NCBI GenBank assembly: GCA_021847945.1
Contig: JAJZNG010000099.1
Location: 1 to 46,306 of the forward strand
Reading direction: 5' to 3'
Length of the DNA: 46,306 nt
Source: Actinomycetes bacterium
GTDB lineage: Bacteria > Actinomycetota > Acidimicrobiia > Acidimicrobiales > Palsa-688
Part shown: positions 12,970-42,219 of the stretch, in pieces
Layout of the letters: every line of letters starts with the position of its first letter
How positions within the stretch are numbered: position 1 is the stretch's first letter
Program-made: the position numbers and the translations under genes
Notes under the pieces: model-generated
What the model was told of the DNA's origin: nothing
What the model saw: only the letters and a program-made list of their open reading frames with translations
Database searches by the model: none

Positions 12970-12985
12970 GTGACCACGCGGTCAC
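12970..12985. promoter_or_regulatory. Palindromic operator candidate overlapping hpnC start
   Basis: GTGACC-ACGC-GGTCAC, a perfect 6+4+6 inverted repeat on top of the expected transcription start. It is a suitable repressor site for the TetR-type regulator encoded immediately upstream. Inferred from position and symmetry. Confidence 0.45.
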
Positions 12986-20737: not shown

Positions 20738-21742
20738 GTGGGAGTACCCCTACGCCAGAGCCTGAAGATAGGCGCCTACCTTGCCCGCCAGAAGCTCGCT
20801 GGAAGGGAGAAGTTCCCTTTGATAGTCGAGCTCGAACCCCTCTTCGCGTGCAACTTGTCCTGCAACGGTTGCGGCAAGATCCAGTACCCGACGGAGATCC
20901 TCCGCAAACGCCTGTCGGTCGAAGCAGCAGTCGCCGCTATCGAAGAGTGCGGCGCGCCTATGGTCTCGATAGCCGGCGGTGAACCGCTGTTGCACCCCGA
21001 GATCGACAAGATGACGCAAGCTCTGCTCGACCGGGGCCGTTACGTGTACCTGTGCACGAACGCTCTGCTGCTGGAACGCAAACTCGACCGTTTCAGCCCG
21101 CACCACCGTTTCAGCTGGGTCGTGCATATCGACGGTCTAAAAGAGCGTCACGACGAGTCGGTGAGTAGGGAAGGAACCTTCGACAAGGCGGTGGCTGCCA
21201 TAGCTTTGGCTAAGCAGCGCGGGTTCAAGGTGACGACCAACACTACTTTCTTCTCGACCGACTCCCCCAAGACCATCCGGGAAGTCCTCGACTTTTTGAA
21301 CGACGACCTCGGCGTGGACCAGATGATGATCTCGCCTGGATACGCCTACGAGAAGGCTCCGGATCAGGTCCACTTCTTGAGCACCCGGACCTCCCAGGAG
21401 ATCTTCGCCGAGGCGTTCGGCGACGGCCGGCGAAAAAAGTGGCGCCTGAATCACAGCCCGCTCTTCTTGGACTTCTTGGAGGGCAAGGCCGACTTCCAGT
21501 GCACGCCGTGGGGAATACCGAGCTACTCGGTTTTCGGTTGGCAGCGTCCCTGCTACTTGATGGCCGACGGTTACACCGACACCTACAAGGAGCTCGTCGA
21601 CACCACCGACTGGGACCGCTACGGCAGGGGACGCGACCCGCGATGCGCCAACTGCATGGCTCACTGCGGCTACGAACCGAGCGCCGTTCTCGCTACGACC
21701 AAGTCGCTTCGCCAGTCGATCCGCGCCGCGGTGGGCTCCTGA
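20738..21742 (+). CDS. hpnH: Adenosylhopane synthase HpnH (radical SAM)
   Basis: Adds the 5'-deoxyadenosyl group of SAM to hopene, the first step of hopanoid side-chain growth. 334 residues from GTG 20738, which directly follows the preceding TAA; GGAGG lies 10 bases upstream. The radical SAM cluster motif is CNLSCNGC (Cys38, Cys42, Cys45), with SIAGGEPLLHPEI (77-89) as the SAM-binding GGE motif. A C-terminal Cys group (CANCMAHCGY, about 307-316) and PSYSVFGWQRPCYLM near 263 are typical of HpnH. It overlaps the aminotransferase start by one base. Confidence 0.95.
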   Translation: MGVPLRQSLKIGAYLARQKLAGREKFPLIVELEPLFACNLSCNGCGKIQYPTEILRKRLSVEAAVAAIEECGAPMVSIAGGEPLLHPEIDKMTQALLDRGRYVYLCTNALLLERKLDRFSPHHRFSWVVHIDGLKERHDESVSREGTFDKAVAAIALAKQRGFKVTTNTTFFSTDSPKTIREVLDFLNDDLGVDQMMISPGYAYEKAPDQVHFLSTRTSQEIFAEAFGDGRRKKWRLNHSPLFLDFLEGKADFQCTPWGIPSYSVFGWQRPCYLMADGYTDTYKELVDTTDWDRYGRGRDPRCANCMAHCGYEPSAVLATTKSLRQSIRAAVGS

Positions 21743-23127
21743 TGGGATTCGACCTGGCGGACCTAGTCAAGTCTCGGGCGGGCGAAGGCTCCCAGCTGTG
21801 GTCGCGCTACTTGAACCCGCAGACGTCGAAAGTTCTTCACTCTGTCGGACTCGACCGTCAGTGGGTCCGCGCGCAAGGCCCCTACCTTTGGGACGACCAA
21901 GGAGACCGCTACCTCGACTGGCTGGCCGGGTTCGGCGTGTTCGGACTGGGACGTAACCATCCCGTGGTCGCCCGGGCGTTGCATCAGGTTCTCGACGCGG
22001 AGCTCGCCGACATGGTCAAGATGGACACGCCGCTGCTGGCGGGACTCCTGGGCGAGGCGTTGGTAGCACGGGTCCCTCACCTTGACAGGGTTTACCTGTG
22101 CAACAGCGGGACTGAAGCGGTGGAGGCAGCCCTCAAGTTCGCAAGGTACTACACCGGCCGGCCTCGTGTCCTCTACTGCGGCCACGCCTACCACGGTTTG
22201 ACCGCCGGCGCCTTATCGGTGAACGGCGGGAAGGCCTTCAAAGCCGGTTTCGGCCCGCTCCTGCCGGCCAGCGAGATCCCCTTCGGGGATATCGCTGCCC
22301 TGGAGAAGGCCGCCGCGAAGGGCGACGTCGCTGCGCTTATCGTGGAACCCGTCCAGGGCAAGGGGGTTCAGGTGGCGCCGCCCGGATATCTTGCCGCCGC
22401 CGCCGGGGTACTTCACGCTAACAAGGCGCTGCTAATATGCGACGAGGTACAGGCGGGAATGGGACGGACCGGGCGGATGTTCAGTTTTGAACACGACGCT
22501 GTCGAGCCCGACATAATTACGGTGGCCAAGACGCTGTCTGGGGGTTACGTTCCAGTCGCGGCGACCATGACCCGAGAGGATATCTTCGGATCCGTGTACT
22601 CGTCCATGACAAGGGTGCTGGTGCACGACACCACCTACAGCCACAACAACATGGCGGCGGCGGCCGGTCTCGCTGCTCTAAGCGTGATCGACGACGAAGG
22701 GCTGTTAGCCAACGCCGCTGCACGCGGGGACGAGCTCCGCCGTTCGCTGGAACGCAGCGCTGCACGTTTCGACTTCATCAAAGACGTGAGAGGACGCGGC
22801 CTCATGGTCGGCATCGAGTTCGGGGCTCCTGGGTCGCTGCGACTCAAAGGCCGTTACAGTCCTCTCAGCGCGCTCCGAAAGGGACTGTTCACCCAGATGG
22901 TCGTCTGCAGACTTTTCAGCGAGCACCGGGTGCTCACCCAGACCGCCGCAGACCACATGGACGTCCTCAAGCTCCTCCCACCGTTGGCTACGACCTCAGA
23001 GGACATCGGATGGTTCATGTCCGGCTTCGAAGCTGTGATGGGCGAGATACAAGCCAGCAGCCGTCCCGTCTGGCAGTTCGCCAAGGGCCTTGCCTCGAGG
23101 TCCCTGGCGAGAAGCTCACATGCCTAG
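21742..23127 (+). CDS. Class III aminotransferase, HpnO-like
   Basis: A PLP enzyme of the acetylornithine/GABA aminotransferase class, 461 residues from ATG 21742 (TGATG overlap with hpnH). NSGTEAVEAALKFAR (121-135) binds the cofactor phosphate, DEVQAGMGRTG (234-244) holds the PLP Asp, and Lys263 in VAKTLSGGY forms the Schiff base. As the last gene of the operon it most likely makes aminobacteriohopanetriol from ribosylhopane, as HpnO does. The Streptomyces hopanoid cluster also ends with an aminotransferase gene. The extra N-terminal segment (about 1-40) and C-terminal amphipathic tail (QFAKGLASRSLARSS) may associate with the membrane; this is inference. Confidence 0.85.
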   Translation: MGFDLADLVKSRAGEGSQLWSRYLNPQTSKVLHSVGLDRQWVRAQGPYLWDDQGDRYLDWLAGFGVFGLGRNHPVVARALHQVLDAELADMVKMDTPLLAGLLGEALVARVPHLDRVYLCNSGTEAVEAALKFARYYTGRPRVLYCGHAYHGLTAGALSVNGGKAFKAGFGPLLPASEIPFGDIAALEKAAAKGDVAALIVEPVQGKGVQVAPPGYLAAAAGVLHANKALLICDEVQAGMGRTGRMFSFEHDAVEPDIITVAKTLSGGYVPVAATMTREDIFGSVYSSMTRVLVHDTTYSHNNMAAAAGLAALSVIDDEGLLANAAARGDELRRSLERSAARFDFIKDVRGRGLMVGIEFGAPGSLRLKGRYSPLSALRKGLFTQMVVCRLFSEHRVLTQTAADHMDVLKLLPPLATTSEDIGWFMSGFEAVMGEIQASSRPVWQFAKGLASRSLARSSHA

Positions 23128-28882: not shown

Positions 28883-29652
28883 GCTTCGTCGCGTCGAGAG
28901 GCGACCTCACCTCGCAGCAGGCCGAGCAAGAGAGCGGCCTGCTCGGCACGACAAATCAGCAGGTCATCCACATAGGGCGTAGCCCGGTTATAGACAAGCG
29001 TTGAGCCGTCCACGCGCGAAGCGTGTAGACCGGCGCTCATCGCCACACCGACCGGCGCGGCCGAGTCCCACTCCCACTGCCCGCCGGTGTGCACGTAGGC
29101 GTCGACGGTTCCCTCCACTACGGCCATCGCCTTGGCCCCGGCGGATCCCATGCGCACCACGTCGAAGCCGGCGGCGGCCGCCACCGCTGAGGCGACCGGT
29201 TGGGGTCGGCTGTCGCTCACGGCGAGCCTTCTGGGGCCGTCATGGGCGCTCCGAGCGTCTGGAACCCGGTCGCTTGCGAACACCTTGCCCTGCGCGGGAA
29301 GGCTGACCGCCGCAACCGCGATACCCACGTCTCGCTCCCAAAGCGCTATGTGCACAGCCCAGTCCTGCCTACCGGGTGTGCGGTACTCGCGGGTCCCGTC
29401 GAGGGGGTCTACGATCCACACTCTGTCTGCTTCGAGGCGACGAAGGTCGTCAGGGGATTCCTCGGAGAGGATCATGTCGTCCGGGCGGCATTCGCCTAGG
29501 CGATCTTGTATCAACCTGTTCGACTCGAAGTCTCCCGCATCGCCGAGTCTCTGACCGACCAGCCCTCCTGCGCGTACGGCGAGCAGAAGGCGGCCGGCCT
29601 CCTCGGCCACCTGCGCGGCGAGGCGGGCGTCGTCGAGGGAGTGTGAGCTCAC
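28858..29652 (-). CDS. CysQ-type 3'(2'),5'-bisphosphate nucleotidase / inositol monophosphatase family
   Basis: A Mg-dependent phosphatase of 264 residues. The metal site is complete: SEES (63-66, Glu64/Glu65), WIVDPLDGTREY (79-90, Asp82, Asp85) and QWEWDSAAPVGVA (about 192-204) with the third Asp. The TREY ending fits CysQ/PAP phosphatases better than inositol monophosphatases (usually T-x-N-F), so the likely role is recycling PAP to AMP in sulfur metabolism. The GTG overlaps the stop of the fused mutase gene (GTGA), so the two are co-translated, an odd pairing with no obvious metabolic link. A 14-bp perfect palindrome (29641-29654) spans this junction. Confidence 0.88.
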   Translation of the reverse strand: MSSHSLDDARLAAQVAEEAGRLLLAVRAGGLVGQRLGDAGDFESNRLIQDRLGECRPDDMILSEESPDDLRRLEADRVWIVDPLDGTREYRTPGRQDWAVHIALWERDVGIAVAAVSLPAQGKVFASDRVPDARSAHDGPRRLAVSDSRPQPVASAVAAAAGFDVVRMGSAGAKAMAVVEGTVDAYVHTGGQWEWDSAAPVGVAMSAGLHASRVDGSTLVYNRATPYVDDLLICRAEQAALLLGLLRGEVASRRDEAHRLGSSE

Positions 29653-32600
29653 ACGTTGCGTCGGTACTTGCCGCCGACCTCGAAGAGCGTCTGCGTTATC
29701 TGACCCAGACTTGCGTATCGCACAGCGTCCATCAGCACGCCGAACACGTTACCCCCAGACAGTGCAGTGTCGGCGAGGCGTGCGAGGACCCCAGGGCGCT
29801 CGTCGGCGTGACGGGCGTGGAAGGACGCTAGCCGCTCCAGCTGGCTGCGCTTTTCGTCTTCGGTAGAGCGGGCCAGTTCGAGATGGGAAGGCACGGCGTC
29901 TCCTTCGGGGTTTCGGAAGGTGTTGACACCGACGATGGGGAGAGTCCCGTCGTGCTTGCGGCTCTCGTAGAGCATCGACTCGTCCTGGATGCGGCCGCGC
30001 TGGTAGCCGGTCTCCATCGCTCCAAGCACGCCACCCCGCTCCGAGAGGCGGTCAAGCTCGGCCAGGACTGCCTCTTCGACAAGGTCCGTGAGCTCCTCCA
30101 CGATGAAGCTGCCCTGCAAGGGGTTCTCGTTCGCTGCGAGGCCCCACTCCCGGCTGATTATCAGCTGGATCGCAAGAGCCCGTCTGACCGACTCGGCCGT
30201 TGGGGTCGTCACTGCCTCGTCGTAGGCGTTGGTGTGCAAGCTGTTGGCGTTGTCGTATATCGCGCACAGCGCCTGGAGGGTGGTGCGGATGTCGTTGAAA
30301 GCCATCTCTTGGGCGTGGAGGGAGCGCCCCGAGGTCTGGATGTGGTACTTCAGCTTCTGAGCACGTTCGGAGGCACCGTAGCGGTCGCGCATCGCAATCG
30401 CCCAGATCCGCCTTGCTACGCGGCCTATGACCGTGTACTCGGGGTCCATGCCGTTGGAGAAGAAGAAGGAGAAGTTCGGGGCGAAGTCGTCAACGTGCAT
30501 TCCTCGCGCCAGGTAAGCCTCGACGTAGGTGAAACCGTTCGCGAGGGTAAAAGCCAGCTGGCTGATCGGGTTAGCCCCCGCCTCGGCAATGTGATATCCC
30601 GAGATCGACACGGAGTAGAAATTCTTGACGGCGTTGTCGATGAACCACTCCTGGATGTCGCCCATGACCCGCAGCGAGAACTCCGTCGAGAATATGCACG
30701 TGTTCTGACCCTGGTCCTCCTTGAGGATGTCGGCCTGCACCGTACCCCTGATACGGCGCAGGGTCGAAGAGCGGATCTCCTCCGCCTCCTGTGAGGTTGG
30801 CGGCCGAGAGTTCGCAGCGGTAAACCGTTCGGTCTGGTCGTCTATAGCGGCGTTGAAGAACATCGCCAGTATCGTCGGAGCCGGACCGTTGATCGTCATG
30901 GAAACAGATGTGGCCGGGTCGCACAGGTCGAACCCCCTGTAAAGGTCCCGCATGTCGTCGAGTGTTGCTATGGACACGCCCGAGTTGCCAACCTTCCCGT
31001 ATATGTCAGGCCGGACGTCAGGATCGAAACCGTAGAGGGTGACCGAGTCGAAAGCCGTCGACAAACGCGTGGCGGGCTGGCCGGCTGACAGCATGTGGAA
31101 TCGCGTGTTGGTCCGGGCAGCGTCGCCCTCGCCGGCGAACATCCGCGCTGGGTCTTCACCTTGCCTTTTGAGTGGGAAGACTCCGGCGGTGAAGGGGAAT
31201 GCTCCGGGAAGGTTCTCCGAGCGTAACCATGCGAGCAGATCCCCGTCGGACTCGAAGCGCGGCAGGGCTACCCTCGCCACGGGAGTACCCGAAAGGGACA
31301 CTTTGTGAAGTTCCGCGTCCGACAGGGCCGCTGCTCTAGCCGGCCATTCTTCGAGCAGCCGTCTGGACTCGGCGTCGAAGCTCTCCTCGGTCGTCGACGC
31401 GAGACGCCTCACGTCGGAGTCTTCCAGTCCTTGCTCGTCGAGGATGCCGAGCACTTCGCGCAGGGCCTGGCGGCGTCGCGCTTGCAGCACGACTTGCCGT
31501 GTGCGGCGGTGGTAGTTGCGGACAGCTTCGGAAATCTCCGAGAGATACCGCGACCGGGCGGTCGGGACGATCGCATCTCGTCGCGTCGATATACGCCCAG
31601 CCTGCGGGGGAAGGACCCCCGTGGTCGCGTGGAGCCCGAGCGCCCGCAACTGCGTTAGAAGGTAGTGGTAGAGGGCGTTCACGCCGTCGTCGGCGAAACG
31701 GGAAGCGACAGTGGCGAAGACCGGGAGCTCCTCCAAGGCAACGCCACGATGGTCGCCGCTTCTCGCCAGGTGACGGCGTACGTCACGGAGCGCGTCCGCA
31801 CCACCGGTACGTTCGAACTTGTTGACCACCACTGCCTTGGCGAAGTCGAGCATGTCGATCTTCTCCAGCTGCGAAGGTGAGCCGAACTCGGGTGTCATCA
31901 CGTACACGGGCAGGTCCACGTGGGAGATGACCTCGGCGTCGCCTTGTCCGATGCCGGGTGTCTCTACGATCACCAGGTTGAAGCCCCCGGCACGGCATAT
32001 GGAGATTGCGTCGTCCAGGCAGCCTGGCAGCTCCGAAGTGGAACCCCTGGTGGCAAGGGAGCGAAAGAAAATTGTCCGGTGACCGTGGTTGGACACGTCG
32101 AGCGAGTTCATTCGAATTCGGTCACCGAGCAGTGCTCCTCCCCCCTTGCGCCGGGTCGGGTCCACTGCGAGGACCGCCACGGAGAGCTTGTCCTGCTGGT
32201 CGAGGCGGAAGCGGCCCACGAGCTCGTCGGTCAGGGAAGACTTGCCGGAACCCCCCGTGCCTGTGATACCCAACACAGGCGCCGGGTTGGTAGCGGCCGC
32301 TTCGGAGATGCGCCTGCGGGTTTCCACGTCCAAGCCGCCGTTCTCGGACACCGAGATCAGCCTGGCTATAGCCCGCTGGTCGCCTTCGGTCGCCGCTTGG
32401 ACGTCTCGGGGGTCGAGGGGGAGCGGAGGCGTATCGCATTGTCTGATCAAAAGGTTGATCATGGATTCAAGGCCTAGCGACTGGCCGTCTTGGGGCGAGA
32501 AGATACGCGAGATCCCGTAAGCGTGGAGCTCGTCGATCTCCGAGGCGACGATCGTTCCTCCCCCACCGCCGTACACGCGTATGTCGGGACGGCCCTCGGA

Positions 32601-32858
32601 GCGGAGCCTGTCGAGGAGGTAGCGGAAGTACTCGACATGGCCCCCCTGATAGGAACTGATGGCGACGCCTTGAACGTCCTCTTGGATCGCGGCCGTGACG
32701 ACTTCGTCGACTGAGCGGTTGTGGCCGAGGTGGATAACCTCGGCCCCTTGGGCGACTAGGAGCCGTCTCATGATGTTGATAGCCGCGTCGTGACCGTCGA
32801 AGAGGCTAGCGGCGGTGACGAAACGCACCGGATTGACCGGTCGCTGCACAGAGTTCAC
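29649..32858 (-). CDS. icmF: Fused isobutyryl-CoA mutase IcmF (B12-dependent, with G-protein chaperone)
   Basis: Interconverts isobutyryl-CoA and butyryl-CoA. 1069 residues in the normal IcmF order: cobalamin-binding domain (about 10-140, SLFDGHDAAIN with Asp21/His23), MeaI-type GTPase (about 190-400, Walker A GITGTGGSGKSS at 197-208, and VDPTRRKGGGALLGDRIRM), a linker, then the catalytic TIM barrel (about 500-1069; TLYGFDPDVRPDIYGKVGNS, SISGYHIAEAGANP). Related fusions act on pivalyl- or isovaleryl-CoA, and I cannot separate these from sequence alone. The start is GTG 32858, apparently leaderless. The E1 dehydrogenase upstream could supply isobutyryl-CoA from valine. The phosphatase gene follows with a 4-base overlap. 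Confidence 0.94.
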   Translation of the reverse strand: MNSVQRPVNPVRFVTAASLFDGHDAAINIMRRLLVAQGAEVIHLGHNRSVDEVVTAAIQEDVQGVAISSYQGGHVEYFRYLLDRLRSEGRPDIRVYGGGGGTIVASEIDELHAYGISRIFSPQDGQSLGLESMINLLIRQCDTPPLPLDPRDVQAATEGDQRAIARLISVSENGGLDVETRRRISEAAATNPAPVLGITGTGGSGKSSLTDELVGRFRLDQQDKLSVAVLAVDPTRRKGGGALLGDRIRMNSLDVSNHGHRTIFFRSLATRGSTSELPGCLDDAISICRAGGFNLVIVETPGIGQGDAEVISHVDLPVYVMTPEFGSPSQLEKIDMLDFAKAVVVNKFERTGGADALRDVRRHLARSGDHRGVALEELPVFATVASRFADDGVNALYHYLLTQLRALGLHATTGVLPPQAGRISTRRDAIVPTARSRYLSEISEAVRNYHRRTRQVVLQARRRQALREVLGILDEQGLEDSDVRRLASTTEESFDAESRRLLEEWPARAAALSDAELHKVSLSGTPVARVALPRFESDGDLLAWLRSENLPGAFPFTAGVFPLKRQGEDPARMFAGEGDAARTNTRFHMLSAGQPATRLSTAFDSVTLYGFDPDVRPDIYGKVGNSGVSIATLDDMRDLYRGFDLCDPATSVSMTINGPAPTILAMFFNAAIDDQTERFTAANSRPPTSQEAEEIRSSTLRRIRGTVQADILKEDQGQNTCIFSTEFSLRVMGDIQEWFIDNAVKNFYSVSISGYHIAEAGANPISQLAFTLANGFTYVEAYLARGMHVDDFAPNFSFFFSNGMDPEYTVIGRVARRIWAIAMRDRYGASERAQKLKYHIQTSGRSLHAQEMAFNDIRTTLQALCAIYDNANSLHTNAYDEAVTTPTAESVRRALAIQLIISREWGLAANENPLQGSFIVEELTDLVEEAVLAELDRLSERGGVLGAMETGYQRGRIQDESMLYESRKHDGTLPIVGVNTFRNPEGDAVPSHLELARSTEDEKRSQLERLASFHARHADERPGVLARLADTALSGGNVFGVLMDAVRYASLGQITQTLFEVGGKYRRNV

Positions 32859-32943: not shown

Positions 32944-35100
32944 TCAGAAATCCAAAAGGCGCTGCGCCGCAGCGGCGATAGTGGAGACCTGAGGGAGTAT
33001 CGCAGCCTCCAGGCCGGGCTCGTAGGCGACGTGTGTGTCCGCGGCGCCCACTCGCATCACCGGGGCATCCAAGTCGGCGAAGCAATTCTCTCCTATCCAC
33101 GCTGCGACCTCGGCGCCGAAACCGCAGGTGAGCACGTCCTCGTGGACCACCAGCACCCGGCCACTTAGGGCCACCGACTCCGCCACGAGCTCCTTGTCCC
33201 AAGGAACGATCGAGCGCAGGTCCAACACCCGCGCGCTCACATGGTCGAGACTTCGCACAGCTTGCAGGGACTTCTCGACCGTGGCGCCCCAAGTGACGAC
33301 CGTGAGATCGTGGCCGTCTTCGGCAACTCTCGCCCTGCCGAACCCTACCTTGTAACCGGGAGGTGGGTACACGGTCTTGGTGTAGGACTGGCGGAGCAGA
33401 TGCTTGTGTTCCAAGAAGAGCACAGGGTCCTCGGCCGCAAGGGCGCTGCGCAACAGGCCAACGGCGTCGCTGGCTCGCGACGGCATCACGACGGTCAGCC
33501 CCGGTACGTGGGCGAAGATCGACTCCCCGGACTGCGAATGCCATATCGCCCCGCCGGACAGGTAGCCGCCTATCGGGACGCGGATGACGAGCGGGCACAC
33601 GAAAGCTCCGTTGGAGCGCCACCTGATCGTCGCCGCTTCGGTCTTGATCTGCTGCATCGCCGTCCAGATGTAGTCGAAGAACTGGACTTCGGCCACGGGG
33701 CGCAGGCCTCGAATCGCCTGGCCCACAGCCCGACCGACTATGTCGGCTTCAGCGAGAGGCGTGTTGTAACAGCGGGCGAGGCCGAACTCCCGTTGAAGTC
33801 CGAACGTGGTGCCGAACACCCCGCCCTTGCCTTCAACCTTGGCGAGAATCTGCTCCCTGGCGTCAGCGACGTCCTCGCCGAATACTCGAACCCGCTGATC
33901 AGACCTCATCCCTTCCCTAAGCGCAAGTCGAATGGCTTCCCCGAGGGCCACCGTCTCAGACCCAGCCGCAGCGGACGGCTCCTCAGCCTCGTCGACAGCA
34001 GGCAGGTCGACGACGTGAAAGCGGACACTGTGTGGGTCCGGGCGGGGGGCGTCCAGGGCCTTTCGTGATGCGTCGGCCACCTCTCGACGCGCTTCGTCGC
34101 TCATCGCGTCCAGCTGCTCGGCCGTGGCTAAACCCCGAGCGATGATCGAAGCGCGCATACGCCGAAGGGGGTCCCGACTGAGCTCTTCGACGAGCTCTTC
34201 CTCTGAGCGGTACTTGCTCTGGGTATCCGCGGAGGAATGAGAGTAAGGACGGGTGACCGTCGCGTGCAGCAGCGCCGGTCCTACCCCCGCTCTCACCCGT
34301 GCCACCAAGGAGCGAGCCACTGCCCGCACAGCGAAGTAGTCTGTCCCGTCGACCTTCGCCACGCTCAGGCCGCGAAATCCCCGTACGAGCTCCGAGATCG
34401 GAGCCGGTGCCTGGTCTGCGGACGGTACCGAGATAGCGAAGCCGTTGTCTGCGACCACGAAGAGCACAGGCAGGTGCAAGGTGCACGCCGAGCTGAGGCT
34501 CTCCCAGAACTCACCCTCCGAGGTCGCCCCCTCACCGAGGGACACGTAGGTGATCTCGTCTCCTCTGGCTGTGCAGCCGGCAAGGCCAGAGTTGCGGACG
34601 ATGTAGCGAGCGGCCTCTGCACAGCCGACGGCTGGCAGGCACTGACTAGCGGTCGCAGAAGACTGCGTGACTATGTTCAGGGCTTTGTTACCCCAGTGGC
34701 AGGGCATCTGACGCCCCCCGGAAGCCGGGTCGTCAGCAGAGCCGACTGCCTGCAAGAGCATTTCTAGCGGCGTCACCCCCAACGCCAGGACGAGAGCCCG
34801 ATCCCGGTAGTAGGGGAAAAACCAATCGTAGGCTGGCCGCAGGTGACGGGCCAGCCCCAGAGCGAGAGCTTCGTGGCCCGCTCCGGAGATTTGGAAGAAA
34901 ACCCGGCTCTGCTTTTGCAGCGAGATCTCCCTGTCGTCGAGGAACCTCGACATCAAAGCGAGCCGGAAGTCCTCAAGAAGCTCTGCGTCCGTGACGCCGG
35001 GGGGATCTCCTCGATGACGCGACGGCCGCTCCCCGCGCCGGGTTGTCAGCCCCACCGCCTCCTGCTCGGGAGTCACATCGGTGCCGCCGGCGCCAGTCAT
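32944..35100 (-). CDS. Fused E1 alpha-beta of a 2-oxoacid dehydrogenase (branched-chain type)
   Basis: A thiamine-diphosphate decarboxylase in which the alpha and beta chains are one protein of 718 residues (from ATG 35100; an in-frame TTG at 35160 would add 20 residues). The alpha half has AGHEALALGLARHL, FPYYRDRA, the ThDP motif GEGATSEGEF (about 186-195, Asp of GDG replaced by Glu) with DNGFAIS, and the loop YSHSSADTQSKYR. The beta half (about 375-718) has FGEDVADA, FGTTFGLQREFG, NTPLAEADIVG, RVPIGGYLSGGAIWHSQS and VVHEDVLTCGFGAEV. E2 and E3 are not in the window. Proximity to icmF favours 2-oxoisovalerate as substrate. The membrane protein gene lies 97 bases upstream on the same strand. 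Confidence 0.9.
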   Translation of the reverse strand: MTGAGGTDVTPEQEAVGLTTRRGERPSRHRGDPPGVTDAELLEDFRLALMSRFLDDREISLQKQSRVFFQISGAGHEALALGLARHLRPAYDWFFPYYRDRALVLALGVTPLEMLLQAVGSADDPASGGRQMPCHWGNKALNIVTQSSATASQCLPAVGCAEAARYIVRNSGLAGCTARGDEITYVSLGEGATSEGEFWESLSSACTLHLPVLFVVADNGFAISVPSADQAPAPISELVRGFRGLSVAKVDGTDYFAVRAVARSLVARVRAGVGPALLHATVTRPYSHSSADTQSKYRSEEELVEELSRDPLRRMRASIIARGLATAEQLDAMSDEARREVADASRKALDAPRPDPHSVRFHVVDLPAVDEAEEPSAAAGSETVALGEAIRLALREGMRSDQRVRVFGEDVADAREQILAKVEGKGGVFGTTFGLQREFGLARCYNTPLAEADIVGRAVGQAIRGLRPVAEVQFFDYIWTAMQQIKTEAATIRWRSNGAFVCPLVIRVPIGGYLSGGAIWHSQSGESIFAHVPGLTVVMPSRASDAVGLLRSALAAEDPVLFLEHKHLLRQSYTKTVYPPPGYKVGFGRARVAEDGHDLTVVTWGATVEKSLQAVRSLDHVSARVLDLRSIVPWDKELVAESVALSGRVLVVHEDVLTCGFGAEVAAWIGENCFADLDAPVMRVGAADTHVAYEPGLEAAILPQVSTIAAAAQRLLDF

Positions 35101-35197
35101 AGCCTCATCGTAGGTCGCGAGAGATACTCGCGCTCCCCCAAGAACACCAACTTGACCCAAACTATAAAGCTCTACTTGAGCCTTATGTCGTGCGGTC

Positions 35198-35812
35198 TCA
35201 GAGTCGTGCGGGCTGGGTGACCATCATCATCAGAGCACCCAGAAACAGCAGATCGCTAATCGCCCCAGCCCAAGCAATTCGGGTCGCGTACAACCGAACG
35301 TCGACTTCCAACCCGATGTCCCCTCGTCCGTCCCAACCGCCAACTGGCTCACCGGCGCTGGCCGTAGATGCCGTCCCGCCAGCCTGAAACGCCTCGCCAG
35401 GATCGGAGGAGCCGCGGGTTTCGGCCCTGTTCTTAGTCACTGCCGAGCGAAGCTTCGCCTCCGCAGGGCGCAGGACGCAGACCAATAGCACCGAGGCCAC
35501 TGCCCAGATCATCAGGCCGCCAAGCGCCCATAGCTGAGAGAACTCCGGTCCCCCGGGGCGCACTGCCATCGCAGCCACCCCGAACAGCGGCGCTGCCACG
35601 AGAGCGAACTCCGCCCAGGTTCGGCCGGAGATGAAACGCACCAGCTCGCGTGTGGGTCCTTTCCGGCCCACGACGCCGTAGGCTCCGCTGAGCGCGACAG
35701 CGCCGAACCCTACCAGCGCCAAGCTGACATGCGCCGCGACGAAGATGTCATATAAGAGGGGATGTCCCGGTGGTGCCGCGCGGCGGACTGCCTGCGCCAG
35801 GCGGTCCGCCAC
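35198..35812 (-). CDS. Small integral membrane protein (DUF2269-like)
   Basis: 204 residues with about four hydrophobic segments (roughly 20-45, 67-85, 92-113 and 180-200). HVSLALVGFGAVALSGAYGV near the N-terminus, with a His in the first segment, and the overall size recall DUF2269, whose function is unknown. A long polar, Gly/Ser-rich loop (about 120-168) precedes the last segment. The GTG shares one base with the stop of the acyl-CoA synthetase gene (TAGTG), so the two are probably co-translated. No function can be assigned. Confidence 0.7.
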   Translation of the reverse strand: MADRLAQAVRRAAPPGHPLLYDIFVAAHVSLALVGFGAVALSGAYGVVGRKGPTRELVRFISGRTWAEFALVAAPLFGVAAMAVRPGGPEFSQLWALGGLMIWAVASVLLVCVLRPAEAKLRSAVTKNRAETRGSSDPGEAFQAGGTASTASAGEPVGGWDGRGDIGLEVDVRLYATRIAWAGAISDLLFLGALMMMVTQPARL

Positions 35813-37512
35813 TACGCGCCTGACGCTGCGGGGCTGTCAGCTTTCAGGGTTCGCAGGGCGAGCTCCTTCAGTCTCTTGTAGTCGACCTTCCCGTTAGGTG
35901 CCCGCCCGACGGTGTCGACCAGAACGAGGCGCCTCGGCGCTTTGTAGCCGGCGAGCGTACGCCGGGACCAGGCGGCGAGCTGGTCAAGCTCGGGAGTCTG
36001 GCCCCCGGCCGGTTCGACTACGGCCACGACCATCTCCCCGAAGCGATCGTCGGGTACGCCTACCACTACAGCGTCGGCGACGCTCGGATGGCTCACGAGG
36101 GCCTGCTCGACCTCTTCGGGAAAGATCTTCTCCCCGCCGCTGTTGATACAAACCGACCCGCGACCGAGCAGCTGCAGTGAACCGTCCGCCAGGACCGTCG
36201 CGTAGTCGCCGGGCACGCTCCAGCGCTCCCCGTCGATAACCTTGAAGGTCGCGGCCGTCTTTTCGGGATCCTTGTAGTAGCCGACAGGTCCCCGCCCTCT
36301 GAGAGCGACAAGGCCTCGGCGCCCAGAGCCCGGCTCGACACGGCTACCGTCGTCTGCGATCACGAGCGTGTCGGGTCCGAGGGAGAATCCGGCTGTGGTG
36401 ACCACATCGGATGCGGTGGACGTGGAGCGGGCCAGGCCTATCGCCTCGGACGAGCCGAGGGTGTCGACGAGCTTCAAACGCGGATTGTGGCGCAGGAGCC
36501 CCTGCTTGACCTCAGCCGACCATATGACGCCGGAGCTCACGACCAGCCAGAGGGAGGATATGTCCCATCGCTGAGGGCTGGAGTCGAGCGCGGCGAGGAT
36601 CGGCCTGGCGAACGCGTCGCCCACTATCGAAAGTTCGCTCACCCGCTCCGTCGCGATGAGGTCCAGAAGTACCTCGACGTCGAAGTGGCGGCCTTCGGGC
36701 ATGAACACCGAGCCGGCGCTTGCCAGAACAGACATCGCCGTGAAAAGGCCAGTCCCGTGCATGAGCGGGGGGCCGGGCACGAAACGTGCGGGCGGATGAC
36801 GTGGAGGCTTCGCCAAGGTTGCGCTCACCTCGGCGAGGGTCGCCCCGGCCGGGTAACGCAACCCGGCGGTGCGGTTGAGAACCTCGAAGAGGTCATCCTG
36901 GCGCCACATCACGCCTTTGGGCATCCCCGTCGTGCCTCCCGTGTACACGAAGAGGAGGTCATCGCCGCTTCTTGGCTTGGGCTGGGCTTGCGAGGGGGCG
37001 ATCGCCGCCGCCTCGTAGGGTTCCGCCCACTCAGGACAGGAGTAGCCGTCCTCACCGACCCAGATCCACGATCGTACCGACGGCAGCTGCGCCCGGACCG
37101 CAGAGACACGTTCTGCGAAGGAGGCGTGGAACACGACCGCTTCCGCGTCGCAGTTGTCCCAAAGGTAGACCAGCTCTGCTTCGCTGTAGCGGTAGTTAGT
37201 GTTCACCGCCACCATGCTCGCCTTGAAGCACGCGAAGACGGACTCTAGGTACTCCGGGCAGTTGTACAAGTACTGGGCCACCTTGGAGCCGGGTTGCAGG
37301 CCGGCCCGGCGGAAAGCGTCGGAGACAGCCGAGGCCCTGCGCTCGAAGGTGCGCCAGTCGACACGCCGCGACCCTTGAGCTACGGCGACCCGGTCCGGAA
37401 AGGCTGCTGCCACCTCCTCCCAGACGTCGGCGAAGTTCCAGTTCGTCGGACTGTTAGGCCTTGACACGGTTCCCCCAGGTGCCGATGCCGTCCCTGCGTC
37501 GCGGCCGGTCAT
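35812..37512 (-). CDS. Acyl-CoA synthetase (AMP-forming, FadD-like)
   Basis: Activates a fatty or other carboxylic acid to acyl-CoA through an acyl-AMP. 566 residues from ATG 37512, which overlaps the preceding hydrolase stop (ATGA). The P-loop is YTGGTTGMPKGVMWR (190-204). DTLGSSEAIG (A5-like) follows, then GDYATVL (A7-like, Asp) and LGRGSVCINSGGEKIFPEEVE (A8 hinge). The C-terminal GYKAPRRLVLVDTVGRAPNGKVDY contains the catalytic Lys. The GVMWR form after the P-loop is frequent in actinobacterial FadD19/FadD3-like branches acting on sterol side chains or other unusual acids, but this is only a hint. Confidence 0.92.
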   Translation of the reverse strand: MTGRDAGTASAPGGTVSRPNSPTNWNFADVWEEVAAAFPDRVAVAQGSRRVDWRTFERRASAVSDAFRRAGLQPGSKVAQYLYNCPEYLESVFACFKASMVAVNTNYRYSEAELVYLWDNCDAEAVVFHASFAERVSAVRAQLPSVRSWIWVGEDGYSCPEWAEPYEAAAIAPSQAQPKPRSGDDLLFVYTGGTTGMPKGVMWRQDDLFEVLNRTAGLRYPAGATLAEVSATLAKPPRHPPARFVPGPPLMHGTGLFTAMSVLASAGSVFMPEGRHFDVEVLLDLIATERVSELSIVGDAFARPILAALDSSPQRWDISSLWLVVSSGVIWSAEVKQGLLRHNPRLKLVDTLGSSEAIGLARSTSTASDVVTTAGFSLGPDTLVIADDGSRVEPGSGRRGLVALRGRGPVGYYKDPEKTAATFKVIDGERWSVPGDYATVLADGSLQLLGRGSVCINSGGEKIFPEEVEQALVSHPSVADAVVVGVPDDRFGEMVVAVVEPAGGQTPELDQLAAWSRRTLAGYKAPRRLVLVDTVGRAPNGKVDYKRLKELALRTLKADSPAASGA

Positions 37513-38543
37513 GCCCTCACCGACGCGTCGGAGATAACCCACCTCGAAGGCTGCCCTTCCTTTTCTTCGAGCACCCCCTGGTTCTTCAGGTAGATCAGAT
37601 GGGCGAGGGTCTCACCTGTGGCAGCCCTGCGCATCCATCCGCGGATCTGCTCCCAAGGTCGGCTCCAGGTCATGGCACTCGCGATCAGCCAGGTGGTGTC
37701 CTTTCCAGACCGTATCGCATCTATCGCTTCACCGAAACGCTCGTTGTGATGGTTTCGCAGTTCGCCGACCCTGCCCCGAAGGTCAGCGAAACGGTACTCG
37801 TGGGCCGGGAGGACCTCGTCGGCGTCATAACATGCCACCTTGTCAAGCGAAGCGAGAAAGTCGCCGAGCGGATCAGCTCCGGCTTGGGGGTGGAAGGAGA
37901 TGTTAGGGGTGATCCGGGGAAGGACGTGATCCCCTGAGAGCATCAGGCGGTTGCCGGCCTCGTAGAGGCAGATGTGCCCCGGCGAGTGCCCCGGAGTCCA
38001 GATCGCCGTGATATCCCAGCCGGGAACGTCAGCCTTGTCGCCGTCGTTCACCAATATGTCAGGAGCTACCGCCCAGACCCACGACCGCAAAGGCATCGAC
38101 GCGTCCCGCAGTTCGGCGATCTCGTCGTCGGGCGCACCGTCGCGGCGCAGCATAGCTGCCACACGTTCGAGTAGTTCCGACGGCTCGTCGTAGCGCTCTT
38201 CGATCAAGGCGGCGTCAGCGGGGTGCAGTCCGATCCACGCGCCGGAAGCTTCCCTGACCCTGCCTGCGAGCCCGTAGTGGTCTGGGTGGATGTGGGTGAC
38301 CACCACTCCCCGAATGTCGGTGATCTCATAGCCTGCGCTACCAATCCCTCCCACCAGCGTGTCGAAAGCCTCGTCGGTGTTCCAACCTGCGTCTACGAGG
38401 TACGCTCCCCGCGGGGTCTCGAAGAGGTATACGAGCACATACCGGAGGGGGTTGTTGGGTATTGGGACGGGAATGCTCCACAACCCGGGGCGTACTTGTT
38501 CGACTGGCGGCAGCGGAGGCAACCCTGGGTCAGAATCTCTCAT
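37509..38543 (-). CDS. Metallo-beta-lactamase-fold hydrolase
   Basis: 344 residues from ATG 38543. The frame is open a further 107 codons upstream, but that stretch would run over the divergent acyltransferase gene and has no family resemblance. Motifs: VVVTHIHPDHYGLAG (H-x-H-x-D-H), IWTPGHSPGHICLY with the third His, LSGDHVLPRITPNISF with the bridging Asp, and LPAHEYRF near the C-terminus. The last 60 residues form a winged-helix-like tail (GETLAHLIYLKNQGVL...WVIS), as in the LACTB2-related MBL group, whose members cleave thioesters or RNA. Being translationally coupled to the acyl-CoA synthetase, a thioesterase-like or acyl-processing role is plausible. Confidence 0.88.
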   Translation of the reverse strand: MRDSDPGLPPLPPVEQVRPGLWSIPVPIPNNPLRYVLVYLFETPRGAYLVDAGWNTDEAFDTLVGGIGSAGYEITDIRGVVVTHIHPDHYGLAGRVREASGAWIGLHPADAALIEERYDEPSELLERVAAMLRRDGAPDDEIAELRDASMPLRSWVWAVAPDILVNDGDKADVPGWDITAIWTPGHSPGHICLYEAGNRLMLSGDHVLPRITPNISFHPQAGADPLGDFLASLDKVACYDADEVLPAHEYRFADLRGRVGELRNHHNERFGEAIDAIRSGKDTTWLIASAMTWSRPWEQIRGWMRRAATGETLAHLIYLKNQGVLEEKEGQPSRWVISDASVRA

Positions 38544-38677: not shown

Positions 38678-39820
38678 ATGGCCGAATTGGAGATACGACA
38701 GGTGCGCCACCTCCTGGGACGCCGCGCTTTCGTAGGAGTGCCGTTTCGTATTCACGGCAAGAACCCCGCTTGGGTACCCCCTCTGCGCATAAGCGTCTAC
38801 GACCGGCTCTCGCCAAGGCATCCGGCGGCGGAGCACCAAAAGACGGCCCTGTGGATAGCGACACGCGCCGGCCGGCCAGTCGGCCGGATCGGAGCGTGCG
38901 TCGACAGCCAGTTCAACCACTACCACGACGTCAAATGGGCCTGGGTCGGTTTCTACGACTGCTTCGACGACGCCGGTGCGTCAGCGGCGCTGTTCGACGC
39001 CGCCGGAGCGTGGGCTGCGTCCCAAGGGGCAGACACGATGGTCGGGCCGGCGAACTTTACGACCAACGACGAGCTTGGACTTCAGGTAGATGGCTTCGAC
39101 GATCCCCCCGCTCTTCTCACCTTGGAGAACCCGCCCTACTACGAGCGCTTGTGGTGCGACTACGGTTGGGAGCAGGCGATGGACCTGTGGGCGTGGCGCT
39201 TCGAGCGTTCCTCCACGTCGCTGTCCGAACGTCAAAAGCGCACCCTCGCGAGGATCGAGAAGCGAGCTGGCGTGCGCGCCCGCTCCATCGACATGGCCGA
39301 CTTCGACAACGAGGTCAGCCGCTTCTTCGACATCTACAACGCCGCTTGGCAGGACAACTGGGCCTTCGCTCCGATGCCCGAGGCTGAGGTGCGCCACCTC
39401 GCCCGCCAGCTGAAGAAGATCATCCGTCCCGAATGGGCTTTCGGACTGGAAACCGACGACGGGACCGCCGTCGCCGTATGCCTCGCCGTCCCCGACTTGA
39501 ACCAGCTGATGAGGAGAGTTCGCACCGGAAGGCTGTTCCCGAGCGGTTGGTACCCGTTGGTCAAAGGCCCCAAGACGGTGAGCAGGGCCAGGGTGTGGGC
39601 GCTAGGCGTACGACCCGACTACCAGCATCTGGCACTGGGACCGTTGCTGTACAAAGAGATCGTCGAGCGGCTCATGGCCGACCCGAACATCGAGACGGCA
39701 GAGGCTTCGTGGACGCTAGCCAGCAACCACCAGATCAACGACCAGCTGGCCGCGATGGGCGCCAGCCGCTCGAAGGTGTGGCGCCTCTACCAGCACCGGC
39801 TAACCCCTTCCGCCGGGTGA
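38678..39820 (+). CDS. GNAT-fold acyltransferase, YghO / bacterial ceramide synthase-like
   Basis: 380 residues. PFRIHGKNPAWVPPLRISVYDRLSP (about 22-46), HPAAEHQKTALWIATRAGRPVGRIGACVD and WVGFYDCFDD mark the N-terminal domain of the YghO-type family. GPANFTTNDELGLQVDGFDDPP (about 128-149) is the strongly conserved GP-x-N-x-S/T-x-x-x-x-x-G-x-L-x-x-G-F region, and the C-terminal half is a second GNAT-like domain ending ASWTLASNHQINDQLAAMG. Members include bCerS, which N-acylates (keto)sphinganine in Gram-negative bacteria. The facing gene encodes a serine palmitoyltransferase-like enzyme, and the two overlap tail to tail by 21 bases, supporting a lipid N-acyltransferase role. Biochemistry of actinobacterial members is unknown to me. 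Confidence 0.75.
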   Translation: MAELEIRQVRHLLGRRAFVGVPFRIHGKNPAWVPPLRISVYDRLSPRHPAAEHQKTALWIATRAGRPVGRIGACVDSQFNHYHDVKWAWVGFYDCFDDAGASAALFDAAGAWAASQGADTMVGPANFTTNDELGLQVDGFDDPPALLTLENPPYYERLWCDYGWEQAMDLWAWRFERSSTSLSERQKRTLARIEKRAGVRARSIDMADFDNEVSRFFDIYNAAWQDNWAFAPMPEAEVRHLARQLKKIIRPEWAFGLETDDGTAVAVCLAVPDLNQLMRRVRTGRLFPSGWYPLVKGPKTVSRARVWALGVRPDYQHLALGPLLYKEIVERLMADPNIETAEASWTLASNHQINDQLAAMGASRSKVWRLYQHRLTPSAG

Positions 39821-41086
39821 CGACTTGCCTGCAGCTAACTCCTCGCGGGCCATGTCGAAAGCCCTCACAGCACTGGCGATGTCAGCCTCGGTATGGGTTG
39901 CCATGACCGACGTTCGCAGCAGCGCCCGGGGTACCGCCGGCGGTATCGCGCAGTTCGTGTAGACCCCGTGGGACAAAAGAGCGTTCCAAAGCAGTCCTGC
40001 CTCCCAGACGTCCCCGACCCACACAGGAACGATGGCACTACCCGAAGATGCCCCTACGTCGAAGCCGAGGCCCGACAGTCCACGGCGCAGCTGTTCGGCT
40101 CGGGCCAGCACGGTCTCGCGTCTCCAGTCCTCGCTGCGGGCTATCTTCGCAGCGCTGAGCGCGGCGGCGAGAGCGGCAGGCACGCCCGACGCTGTGAACA
40201 TCAGCGGCCGGCAGGTGATCGTAAGAAAGTCGATGACCGAACGTGGTCCTGCGACGAAACCACCGCAGCTGGCTAGCGATTTGGAGAAGGTTCCTACCAC
40301 GAGGTCGGCTTCGACACCCGCCTCGGCTGCGGTACCGGCACCGCTCGGCCCGACGACTCCCAAAGCGTGCGCCTCGTCGACAAGCAGCCTCGCTCCGAAC
40401 TTCTCGCAGATCGACTTGACGTCCGCCAGCGGGGCGCGGTCACCTTCCATGGAGTAGACGCCGTCGACCGCGACGATCACGCCGCCGGATCCAGGTTGGG
40501 ACCTCCATGTTCGCAGGGCCCGAGTCAGGCTGTTAGGCCGGTTGTGGCGGAACGCGCGTAGGGAACCGGCCGAGTAGCGAGCACCGTCGACGAGACTTGC
40601 GTGCGCGGCCGAGTCGACCACGACCGCGTCGTCGGCACCGAGGAGCGACCCGAGAAGGCCGAGATTTGCCAGGTAGCCGGTGGTGTAAACGAGGGCGGCC
40701 TCTGTGCCCATCCAGTCGGCTATCAACTCTTCCAACTCGCCGTGGAGTGGCAGTGTGCCGTTTAGAAGTCTGCTTCCAGTAACACCCGTGCCGAAACGGT
40801 CAATCGCGTCGCGGGCGGCGCTCCTGACCCGGGGGTCTGCTGTGAGACCCAGGTAGTTGTTCGATCCGAGCATGACCACGGGGCGACCTTCGAAGACCGA
40901 TCGGGGACCAACCTCGCCTTCGACAGCCCGGTAGAACGGCAACAGTCCCATCGCCTCTGCGCTTCGCCACTCCTCCAGCCGAGGATCCGCCGTCTTGGCG
41001 AAGACGTCAGCCGCTGTCTTTTCTGGCTCGGACGGGGAAAGCCCTGGCAGGTCTTGGTCCACTGTTGGGATGGCTCCATCTCGCAT
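39800..41086 (-). CDS. Alpha-oxoamine synthase, serine palmitoyltransferase-like
   Basis: A PLP enzyme condensing an amino acid with an acyl-CoA. 428 residues from ATG 41086, two bases after the preceding stop. Active-site residues: His162 (AAHASL), Asp237 and His240 (VDEAHALG), Lys269 (GTFSKSLAS, PLP Schiff base), Thr/Ser contacts, and Arg391 (LLRTS). It could be AONS (biotin), KBL or SPT. CRPLMFTASGVPAA (about 292-305), GVYSMEGDRAPL, and LLSHGVYTNCAIPPAVP are closer to bacterial SPT (R-P-x-I-F-T-A-S, Y-V-N-x-x-x-P-P-A-T-P) than to BioF, and the length also fits SPT. No bio genes are nearby, whereas a bCerS-like gene is. The frame is open upstream into the glycosidase gene, but that part is its shadow. 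Confidence 0.8.
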   Translation of the reverse strand: MRDGAIPTVDQDLPGLSPSEPEKTAADVFAKTADPRLEEWRSAEAMGLLPFYRAVEGEVGPRSVFEGRPVVMLGSNNYLGLTADPRVRSAARDAIDRFGTGVTGSRLLNGTLPLHGELEELIADWMGTEAALVYTTGYLANLGLLGSLLGADDAVVVDSAAHASLVDGARYSAGSLRAFRHNRPNSLTRALRTWRSQPGSGGVIVAVDGVYSMEGDRAPLADVKSICEKFGARLLVDEAHALGVVGPSGAGTAAEAGVEADLVVGTFSKSLASCGGFVAGPRSVIDFLTITCRPLMFTASGVPAALAAALSAAKIARSEDWRRETVLARAEQLRRGLSGLGFDVGASSGSAIVPVWVGDVWEAGLLWNALLSHGVYTNCAIPPAVPRALLRTSVMATHTEADIASAVRAFDMAREELAAGKSSPGGRG

Positions 41087-41088
41087 GT

Positions 41089-42219
41089 TCAACCCGCGCT
41101 GGCCGGACGAGCCGACATTGTAATGAAATCCCGGGCCCACGACGGATTGAAGAAGGTGGCGGGACCCTGCACGGTGGAAGCGACGAGCTTGGAGCCGTTC
41201 GCTGGCGAGGCGAGACTCCCGGCAGGGGGATCGTAGGTGACGAATACCGTCCAGTCGGGGTTGATGTCGAGTTGCATGCCGCGCACGGCTCCCGCTGCCA
41301 CGAGCAGCTGGGCGAGCTGCAGCGGAGCGAGTGAGGGACCGGTCACGTACACCAGCGCCCCGTCTGAGGTGATCCCGAGCCCTGAACGCCACTGGTTCTC
41401 TATTCCGGCACCAACGCACGAGTCGACGCCGCAGGTGGCGCCCCAGTCCAGCCAGTAAGGCGTGGAAGCCAGCGATGTTGGAGCTCCGTTGGCGACGAGG
41501 GGGACCAGGTTCTGGCGGACGGAAACCACGTTGGGGGTCATCGTCACGTCGGAACCCCAAGCCCCGATGTCGACGCTACCGTCCGAGTAGATAACCAGCG
41601 AAGCCGCCCCAGCCACCAAGGGGTCTACGACCTTGCCCTCGGTGTAGTAGCCGCCGTGGGCGACGGGCATCATGAAACCGCCGTTGAAAGCCGCCACGAG
41701 ACTCGCAGCCTGGGCAGGAAGTACTGGAGCCGTGAAAATGTAGGGTCCTCCGCCCGGGCTGAGAGAACCCGAGTACAGCCGGGCGGATAGAAGTCGGGTG
41801 TCCATCCATGCGATGCCCGCTGCCGCCGTGCCCCCGGGTGGCACCAGCGACGTCTCGTAGACAGCCACGTGCCCGTTGACGGTGCGTCCCGCTGGCGTCC
41901 AGACGCCCTGGTTGGCCCCCTGACCCCCACCAGTCGGGGTCAGGGGGCTCGGCGCGGGTAACGGCGTCGGCCCTGCTGGCACAGTCGTAGTGGAAGTCGT
42001 CGTCGAAGAAGCCGTGCTGGCCGGATCTTTGGTCACCGAGGGTTTGCTGGTGGGGCTTGCCGCCGTACCGCCAGAGCCGGCTCCGGCCCCCGCGGCTGTC
42101 TTGGTGGTAGAGCCAGTAGCACCGCAGGCGGCCGCTGCGATCGCGCCTGAGACGATCAGCGCAGCTAGCTTTCCCCTGCGGGCGATGTCGGTTCGAAGCA
42201 CCGCAAGAGGGTATGTCAC
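41089..42219 (-). CDS. Secreted phosphodiester glycosidase (NAGPA domain)
   Basis: 376 residues. The N-terminus has a basic region (VLRTDIARRGK) and hydrophobic stretch LAALIVSGAIAAAACG, so it is exported; the Cys at about 32 could be lipidated, although the lipobox (AAAC) is weak. A Thr/Ser/Pro linker (about 35-100) would span the cell wall. The remainder matches the phosphodiester glycosidase family related to the mammalian uncovering enzyme: AAFNGGFMMP, GGYYTEGKVVDPL, SLVIYSDGSVDIGAWG, and GAVRGMQLDINPDWTVFVTY with the conserved Asp. The start is GTG 42219. Bacterial members act on cell-surface phosphodiester-linked sugars; the substrate here is unknown. SPT-like gene translation starts 2 bases after its stop. 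Confidence 0.85.
   Translation of the reverse strand: MTYPLAVLRTDIARRGKLAALIVSGAIAAAACGATGSTTKTAAGAGAGSGGTAASPTSKPSVTKDPASTASSTTTSTTTVPAGPTPLPAPSPLTPTGGGQGANQGVWTPAGRTVNGHVAVYETSLVPPGGTAAAGIAWMDTRLLSARLYSGSLSPGGGPYIFTAPVLPAQAASLVAAFNGGFMMPVAHGGYYTEGKVVDPLVAGAASLVIYSDGSVDIGAWGSDVTMTPNVVSVRQNLVPLVANGAPTSLASTPYWLDWGATCGVDSCVGAGIENQWRSGLGITSDGALVYVTGPSLAPLQLAQLLVAAGAVRGMQLDINPDWTVFVTYDPPAGSLASPANGSKLVASTVQGPATFFNPSWARDFITMSARPASAG

What the first reader, a model, noticed from the sequence alone, without database searches (positions are those of the whole stretch)
38678..41086. Possible actinobacterial sphingolipid pair: SPT-like and ceramide synthase-like genes facing each other
The oxoamine synthase has SPT-like signatures (FTAS, YTNCAIPPAVP) rather than typical BioF ones, and the neighbour is a YghO-type acyltransferase, the family that includes bacterial ceramide synthase known from Caulobacter. 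Bacterial sphingolipids are established mainly in Bacteroidetes and Proteobacteria, so the pair in an actinobacterium, near an acyl-CoA synthetase, is notable. The reductase (CerR) is not in the window.
Basis: partly seen in the sequence, partly recalled or inferred. Interest (0 to 1): 0.65.

Follow-up and report, generated by a model that had tools for sequence, protein, structure and literature searches.

The report
Actinobacterial ceramide-making gene pair
Two facing genes in this actinobacterium are very probably the enzymes that build ceramide (serine palmitoyltransferase and the bacterial ceramide synthase); the pair is a known bacterial pathway, but in this lineage the usual third enzyme, the reductase, is missing or replaced.

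Summary
38678-39820 (+) encodes a 380-aa tandem-GNAT protein of the YghO/aca/bCerS family. 39800-41086 (-) encodes a 428-aa alpha-oxoamine synthase; the two genes are tail to tail, overlapping by 21 bp. In trees the synthase falls in one clade (100/99 support) with two crystallised serine palmitoyltransferases and dozens of bCerS-linked homologues, outside BioF and KBL; grouping with BioF is rejected (AU p=0.009). The genome has no bioB above cut-off. The acyltransferase tree agrees: both genes have the same sister group (Conexibacter and relatives).

At least 21 genomes of the window's family carry the SPT, 17 with bCerS seen beside it. Eighteen also have an OlsC/LpxO-type lipid hydroxylase upstream and ten an extended-SDR reductase between the two genes. 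That reductase is not of the canonical CerR lineage. The window's genus lacks both, and no convincing CerR was found elsewhere in the genome (90.5% complete).

Best reading: SPT makes 3-oxo-sphinganine, bCerS N-acylates it, and an unidentified or non-canonical reductase finishes it. Family assignments are strong; the chemistry is inferred. That Actinobacteria can have this pathway is already published; the reductase situation is the variant part.

The parts
38678..39820 (+). bCerS/aca/YghO-family N-acyltransferase (putative bacterial ceramide synthase), 380 aa
   Evidence: tblastn to E. coli YghO (32%), Rubrobacter, Streptomyces and Pseudomonas homologues in sphingolipid loci; tree; AlphaFold2 model pLDDT 93.8 with tandem-GNAT fold
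39800..41086 (-). serine palmitoyltransferase-like alpha-oxoamine synthase, 428 aa; K269 aligns with the PLP lysine (GTFSKS), H162, D237 and H240 with the conserved cofactor-site residues
   Evidence: best PDB matches are SPTs 294-279 bits, KBL 216, BioF 187; trees; motif alignment
39800..39820 (.). 21-bp tail-to-tail overlap of the two genes
   Evidence: coordinates of the two ORFs
41089..42219 (-). NAGPA (phosphodiester glycosidase)-like protein with a lipobox-like N-terminus, 2 nt upstream of the SPT; same position in both genus mates, not seen in the other family loci
   Evidence: weak Pfam match below cut-off; synteny in L214, L215
37509..38600 (-). MBL-fold hydrolase (start uncertain), conserved beside bCerS in about half of the family loci
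   Evidence: PF00753; synteny
35812..37542 (-). acyl-CoA synthetase (AMP-binding), conserved near the pair in part of the family; may supply acyl-CoA
   Evidence: PF00501, NF005863 over cut-off; synteny

Best explanation
The pair is the core of a bacterial ceramide pathway in an actinobacterium. The synthase (39800-41086) condenses L-serine with a long-chain acyl thioester, using PLP on K269, and releases CO2 to give 3-oxo-sphinganine. The tandem-GNAT acyltransferase (38678-39820) adds a second acyl chain to the amine, giving oxo-ceramide or, if reduction comes first, dihydroceramide. The 3-keto group is then reduced by an enzyme outside the locus that is not a recognisable canonical CerR. In relatives an extended-SDR gene between the two genes probably does this, and an OlsC-like hydroxylase probably hydroxylates an acyl chain. 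Shown: gene identities by phylogeny, conserved linkage, placement apart from BioF and KBL. Inferred: substrates, order of steps, product, and what reduces the ketone.
For: Sequence search: SPTs are the top PDB hits by about 60 bits over any other class. Phylogeny: a clade of 34 rows, support 100/99, holds the window gene, the 3a2b and 2jg2 SPTs and bCerS-linked genes; BioF and KBL lie outside; BioF grouping rejected, p-AU 0.0086. Most relatives keep a separate bioF-type gene (345-395 bits) besides the SPT (302-336 bits), so the two are paralogues. Linkage: spt-bCerS-reductase trios in Rubrobacter, Streptomyces, Aureispira, Pseudomonas; 47 of 80 bCerS loci have an SPT-like gene and 21 have both SPT and canonical CerR. 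Congruence: SPT and bCerS trees give the same family clade and the same sister group. Family-wide OlsC/LpxO-like hydroxylase directly upstream of the SPT, also present in Pseudomonas sphingolipid islands at 43% identity. Literature: yghO = aca (PMC9386255); Spt and bCerS act in the cytoplasm (PMC11087976).
Against: The SPT is below the NCBIfam equivalog cut-offs (380 vs 500 bits); by their names these models describe Beta- and Alphaproteobacteria and CFB. No reductase of the canonical CerR type, nor the family's linked reductase, was found in the genome. No specialised ACP was seen near; the acyl-CoA synthetase is generic. YghO-type proteins also occur without a linked SPT, including distant ones in this class. 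SPT-like annotation has failed before: Nostoc Npun_R3567 made no ketosphinganine (PMC8895605), although that protein did not cluster with SPTs. No lipid data.
Confidence: 0.82

Rival explanations
1. The synthase and acyltransferase make an N-acylated alpha-oxoamine lipid that is not a sphingolipid in the strict sense: a different amino acid (alanine, glycine, cysteate) or a product that stays at the 3-keto stage because the genus has lost the reductase.
For: Neither the family's linked reductase nor a canonical CerR is found in the genus; SPTs can use alanine and glycine at low rate (PMC10196870 abstract); the arginine of the Sphingomonas ARPPATP loop is isoleucine in the window, though it is also absent in the proven Sphingobacterium SPT.
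Against: The whole clade, including members with a full reductase, is one SPT group; cysteate-C-fatty acyltransferase (28eh) scores 90 bits below SPT; a reductase need not be linked, and the genome is 90.5% complete.
Confidence: 0.12
2. The synthase is a divergent BioF or KBL serving biotin or threonine metabolism, and the neighbouring GNAT is unrelated.
For: It is the best bioF-model match in the genome (328.7 bits, below the 426 cut-off), and no other stand-alone bioF-type gene was found.
Against: Tree places it with SPT; BioF grouping rejected; most relatives have both genes; bioB not found above cut-off; linkage to bCerS is conserved across phyla.
Confidence: 0.03
3. The pair is a decaying remnant: genus-level loss of the hydroxylase and reductase marks a pathway that no longer works.
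For: Both accessory genes are gone from the locus in all three genus members; PF05118 gave no hit in them (without a positive control).
Against: Both enzymes are intact with catalytic motifs kept, and the SPT is 94% and 84% identical to those of the two genus mates; about half of the family lacks the linked reductase yet keeps SPT, and most of these also keep bCerS and hydroxylase.
Confidence: 0.03

Closest known systems
Caulobacter crescentus / E. coli BL21 ceramide cluster (spt, acpR, aasR, epi/cerR, aca/bcerS=yghO)
   Same: SPT-clade synthase plus YghO/aca-family N-acyltransferase; acyl-activating enzyme nearby
   Different: No specialised ACP or AasR-type synthetase seen, no epi/CerR in the window, genes convergent rather than one operon
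Rubrobacter radiotolerans plasmid and Streptomyces NBC_01001 spt-bcerS-cerR operons (L047, L049)
   Same: Actinobacterial, same two gene families
   Different: These have a canonical CerR directly downstream; the window lineage does not, and its genes form a separate clade with Conexibacter relatives
Conexibacter and relatives SPT/bCerS pair (L083, L087, L105)
   Same: Sister group in both trees; no canonical CerR within the 8 kb read on either side
   Different: Genes divergent (head to head) instead of convergent
Sphingobacterium (3a2b) and Sphingomonas (2jg2) serine palmitoyltransferases
   Same: Same clade, same GTFSKS and GSR-LNGT motifs
   Different: Different phyla; cut-off of the curated equivalog models not reached

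Membership tests
Bacterial serine palmitoyltransferase | Phylogenetic placement with biochemically proven SPTs, apart from BioF/KBL | tested here: met
   Clade 100/99 with 3a2b and 2jg2; AU p 0.0086 against BioF grouping
Bacterial serine palmitoyltransferase | PLP lysine and cofactor-site motifs, GTFSKS signature | tested here: met
   K269, H162, D237, H240 aligned
Bacterial serine palmitoyltransferase | Curated NCBIfam equivalog cut-off (lineage-specific models; not a defining feature of the family as a whole) | tested here: not met
   380 bits vs 500 for NF047599, 363.9 vs 640 for NF047600, 303.6 vs 670 for NF047603; by their names the models describe Beta- and Alphaproteobacteria and CFB
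Bacterial serine palmitoyltransferase | Makes 3-oxo-sphinganine from serine and acyl thioester | not testable with these tools
   needs an enzyme assay
bCerS/aca (YghO) ceramide synthase | Full-length homology to YghO/aca family | tested here: met
   E. coli YghO 32% over 98%; profile 503-520 bits; yghO = aca in PMC9386255
bCerS/aca (YghO) ceramide synthase | Placement among SPT-linked members rather than unlinked relatives | tested here: met
   In a 33-row clade (support 95) in which all rows but three with only 1.5 kb of flank read are SPT-linked; unlinked class relatives are on separate branches
bCerS/aca (YghO) ceramide synthase | N-acylates a long-chain base | not testable with these tools
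   needs an assay
Complete bacterial ceramide pathway (Spt + bCerS + CerR) | CerR-type reductase in the genome | tested here: not met
   Best canonical-profile hit C27 (112 bits) is a sugar-epimerase-like gene beside a glycosyltransferase-like ORF; C47 (73 bits with the family profile) belongs to a separate conserved family gene. Genome 90.5% complete, so absence is provisional
BioF (biotin) | Groups with BioF and sits in a genome with a biotin pathway | tested here: not met

The most novel reading that the evidence does not exclude
A family of actinobacteria makes a distinct, probably acyl-hydroxylated, ceramide class with its own reductase, an extended SDR outside the canonical CerR lineage and so an independent recruitment; in the window's genus that reductase was lost, so the lipid either stays as 3-oxo-ceramide or is reduced by a third, unrelated enzyme.
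Probability: 0.35. Interest if true: 0.65.

Novelty: new variant of a known kind. Interest (0 to 1): 0.48.

Why it matters
If true, it extends sphingolipid synthesis to a whole actinobacterial family, one whose member here also carries a hopanoid cluster. It bears on the open question whether reduction comes before or after N-acylation, by offering organisms with SPT and bCerS but no recognisable CerR. And it suggests the reductase step was recruited more than once in bacteria.

Tried and rejected
C47 epimerase as the missing CerR: rejected, its orthologues sit between PDZ and Zincin_2 genes across the family, including G193, which has a separate SPT-linked reductase. C27 as CerR: rejected, a UDP-sugar epimerase-like gene beside a glycosyltransferase-like ORF. 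C83 second synthase as bioF: rejected, it is the C-terminal part of an acyl-AMP ligase-ACP-synthase fusion. Distant YghO-like genes of the class (f18, f32 groups) as ceramide synthases: rejected, no linked SPT and on separate branches. An alternative reductase in the reductase-less loci of the family: a by-eye look at the remaining ORFs of five loci found none. A PDB sequence match of P0001 to recA fusion chains is a 40-residue stretch and was ignored. The original 2022 ceramide paper is not held; its claims are taken from papers that quote it. PF05118 rang in no control genome, so absence of the hydroxylase outside the locus is not proven. The class of the organism could not be named; phylum Actinomycetota follows from same-phylum genomes whose genes nest with Rubrobacter and Conexibacter in the trees.

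Full report
OBSERVATION. They end tail to tail with 21 bp shared, so they are convergent and cannot be one operon. The nearby acyl-CoA synthetase exists but matches a generic acyl-CoA synthetase model over its cut-off. The genome is a 3.0-Mb draft in 243 contigs, 90.5% complete.

SYNTHASE. In the PDB sequence search all ten best chains are SPTs (294-279 bits); KBL follows at 216, cysteate-C-fatty acyltransferase at 204 and BioF at 187. NCBIfam ranks an SPT model first (380 bits) but below its cut-off of 500. A tree of 120 synthases and a careful tree of 47 put the window protein in one clade with the crystallised Sphingobacterium and Sphingomonas SPTs and with synthases encoded beside bCerS genes (support 100/99). 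KBL and BioF, including the BioF-type genes of the window's own relatives, lie outside. Forcing the window's family together with BioF costs 32 log units, p-AU 0.0086. Of 25 genomes of the window's family, 22 have a match in the SPT score range (302-336 bits in the bioF model), and most also have a separate BioF-type gene scoring 345-395; 21 of the former were confirmed by the tree. One such BioF-type gene lies beside an ORF with biotin-synthase-like sequence (by eye). In the window's genome bioB has no match above cut-off (best 35.8 vs 225) and the only other BioF-like sequence is the end of an acyl-AMP ligase-ACP-synthase fusion.

ACYLTRANSFERASE. Pfam sees only a weak GNAT match. tblastn against plasmids finds E. 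coli YghO (32%), Rubrobacter, Streptomyces, Nonomuraea, Pseudomonas and Sphingomonas homologues over nearly full length. PMC9386255 lists yghO (ECD_02850) and Caulobacter CC_1154 as aca, the acyl-CoA N-acyltransferase of dihydroceramide synthesis. The AlphaFold2 model is confident (pLDDT 93.8, pTM 0.91), and its closest solved folds are tandem GNAT proteins, with mycothiol synthase also among the matches. In the tree the window protein sits in a clade of 33 rows (support 95) in which all rows are SPT-linked except three of which only 1.5 kb of flank was read; its sister is the group of Conexibacter and relatives. The unlinked YghO-like genes of the class are on other branches. The SPT tree gives the same sister group, which is what a pair inherited together would show.

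LINKAGE. Trios of synthase, acyltransferase and NAD-dependent reductase are annotated side by side in Rubrobacter radiotolerans, Streptomyces sp. NBC_01001 and Aureispira, and found in Pseudomonas veronii (reductase by profile). Of 80 bCerS homologues fetched from many phyla (a capped sample, the best by similarity), 47 have an SPT-like gene in the stretch and 21 have both SPT and canonical CerR, although many stretches are short. In the phylum sample 58 of 397 genomes have a homologue of the acyltransferase.

THE FAMILY LOCUS. Twenty-one loci of the window's family were read. Eighteen have an aspartyl/asparaginyl hydroxylase-family gene directly upstream of the SPT (PF05118, 162 bits; best NCBIfam model OlsC, ornithine lipid acyl 2-hydroxylase, 263 bits but below cut-off). 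The same hydroxylase type occurs in Pseudomonas sphingolipid islands (43% identity). Ten have an extended-SDR gene between SPT and bCerS. Seventeen show bCerS next to the SPT; two of the other four are cut by contig ends. The window and its two genus mates lack the hydroxylase and the SDR at the locus and have instead a NAGPA-like gene directly before the SPT (2 nt before it in the window). I read the hydroxylase as acting on an acyl chain of the ceramide; this is inference from family and position.

THE MISSING REDUCTASE. A profile of linked canonical CerRs has its best hit in the own genome at C27 (112 bits), a sugar-epimerase-like gene next to a glycosyltransferase-like ORF. A profile of the family's SPT-linked SDR finds C47 (73 bits), but that gene has orthologues in the same PDZ-Zincin_2 context across the family, including a genome with its own linked SDR. 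In a tree the family SDR forms its own clade (support 100), away from the canonical CerRs. So the family seems to use a reductase of another lineage, and the window's genus, with about half of the family, has none at the locus. The step is needed for ceramide in both published orders of the pathway. It may be done by an unlinked SDR, lie in the unassembled tenth, or be absent.

KNOWN OR NEW. [quoted passage not shown] PMC11087976 says the same of smaller Gram-positive groups. My own recollection, not checked here, is that a Streptomyces was shown to make ceramide in that 2022 study. The pair by itself is therefore a new member of a known kind. What I did not find described, in a limited open-access library, is the family-wide hydroxylase-SPT-SDR/bCerS locus and the reductase replacement or loss; that is why I mark it as a variant. 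A caution is Nostoc, where an SPT-like gene made no product (PMC8895605), but that gene did not group with SPTs.

VERDICT. Probability 0.82 that the two genes make and N-acylate a serine-derived long-chain base; interest moderate.

Noticed in passing
window 12970-23127 (+): Hopanoid cluster: HpnC, HpnD, HpnE, a prenyl-synthase-like ORF, squalene-hopene cyclase (734 bits), an IspH fusion, HpnH (519 bits) and an aminotransferase. So the same contig codes for hopanoids and probable sphingolipids.
   Followed up: partly
L037:11348-14803 (+), own genome contig C83: 1151-aa fusion of acyl-AMP ligase, ACP and alpha-oxoamine synthase, beside a transposase-like ORF; a possible second, self-contained route to an oxoamine lipid.
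   Followed up: partly
window 41089-42219 (-): NAGPA-like gene with a lipobox-like start directly before the SPT in the genus only, where other family members have the hydroxylase; a possible lipid-tailoring or cleaving enzyme.
   Followed up: partly
L216:12084-14128 and L223:2311-5759: In some family members biotin-type genes (bioD-like, bioF, bioA-like, bioB-like) border the hydroxylase-SPT locus, while bioB is not found above cut-off in the window's genome; a possible trap for annotation.
   Followed up: no
window 29649-32858 (-): Fused isobutyryl-CoA mutase IcmF over its cut-off (1779 bits), close to a fused dehydrogenase E1 (32944-35160); could feed branched acyl chains.
   Followed up: no
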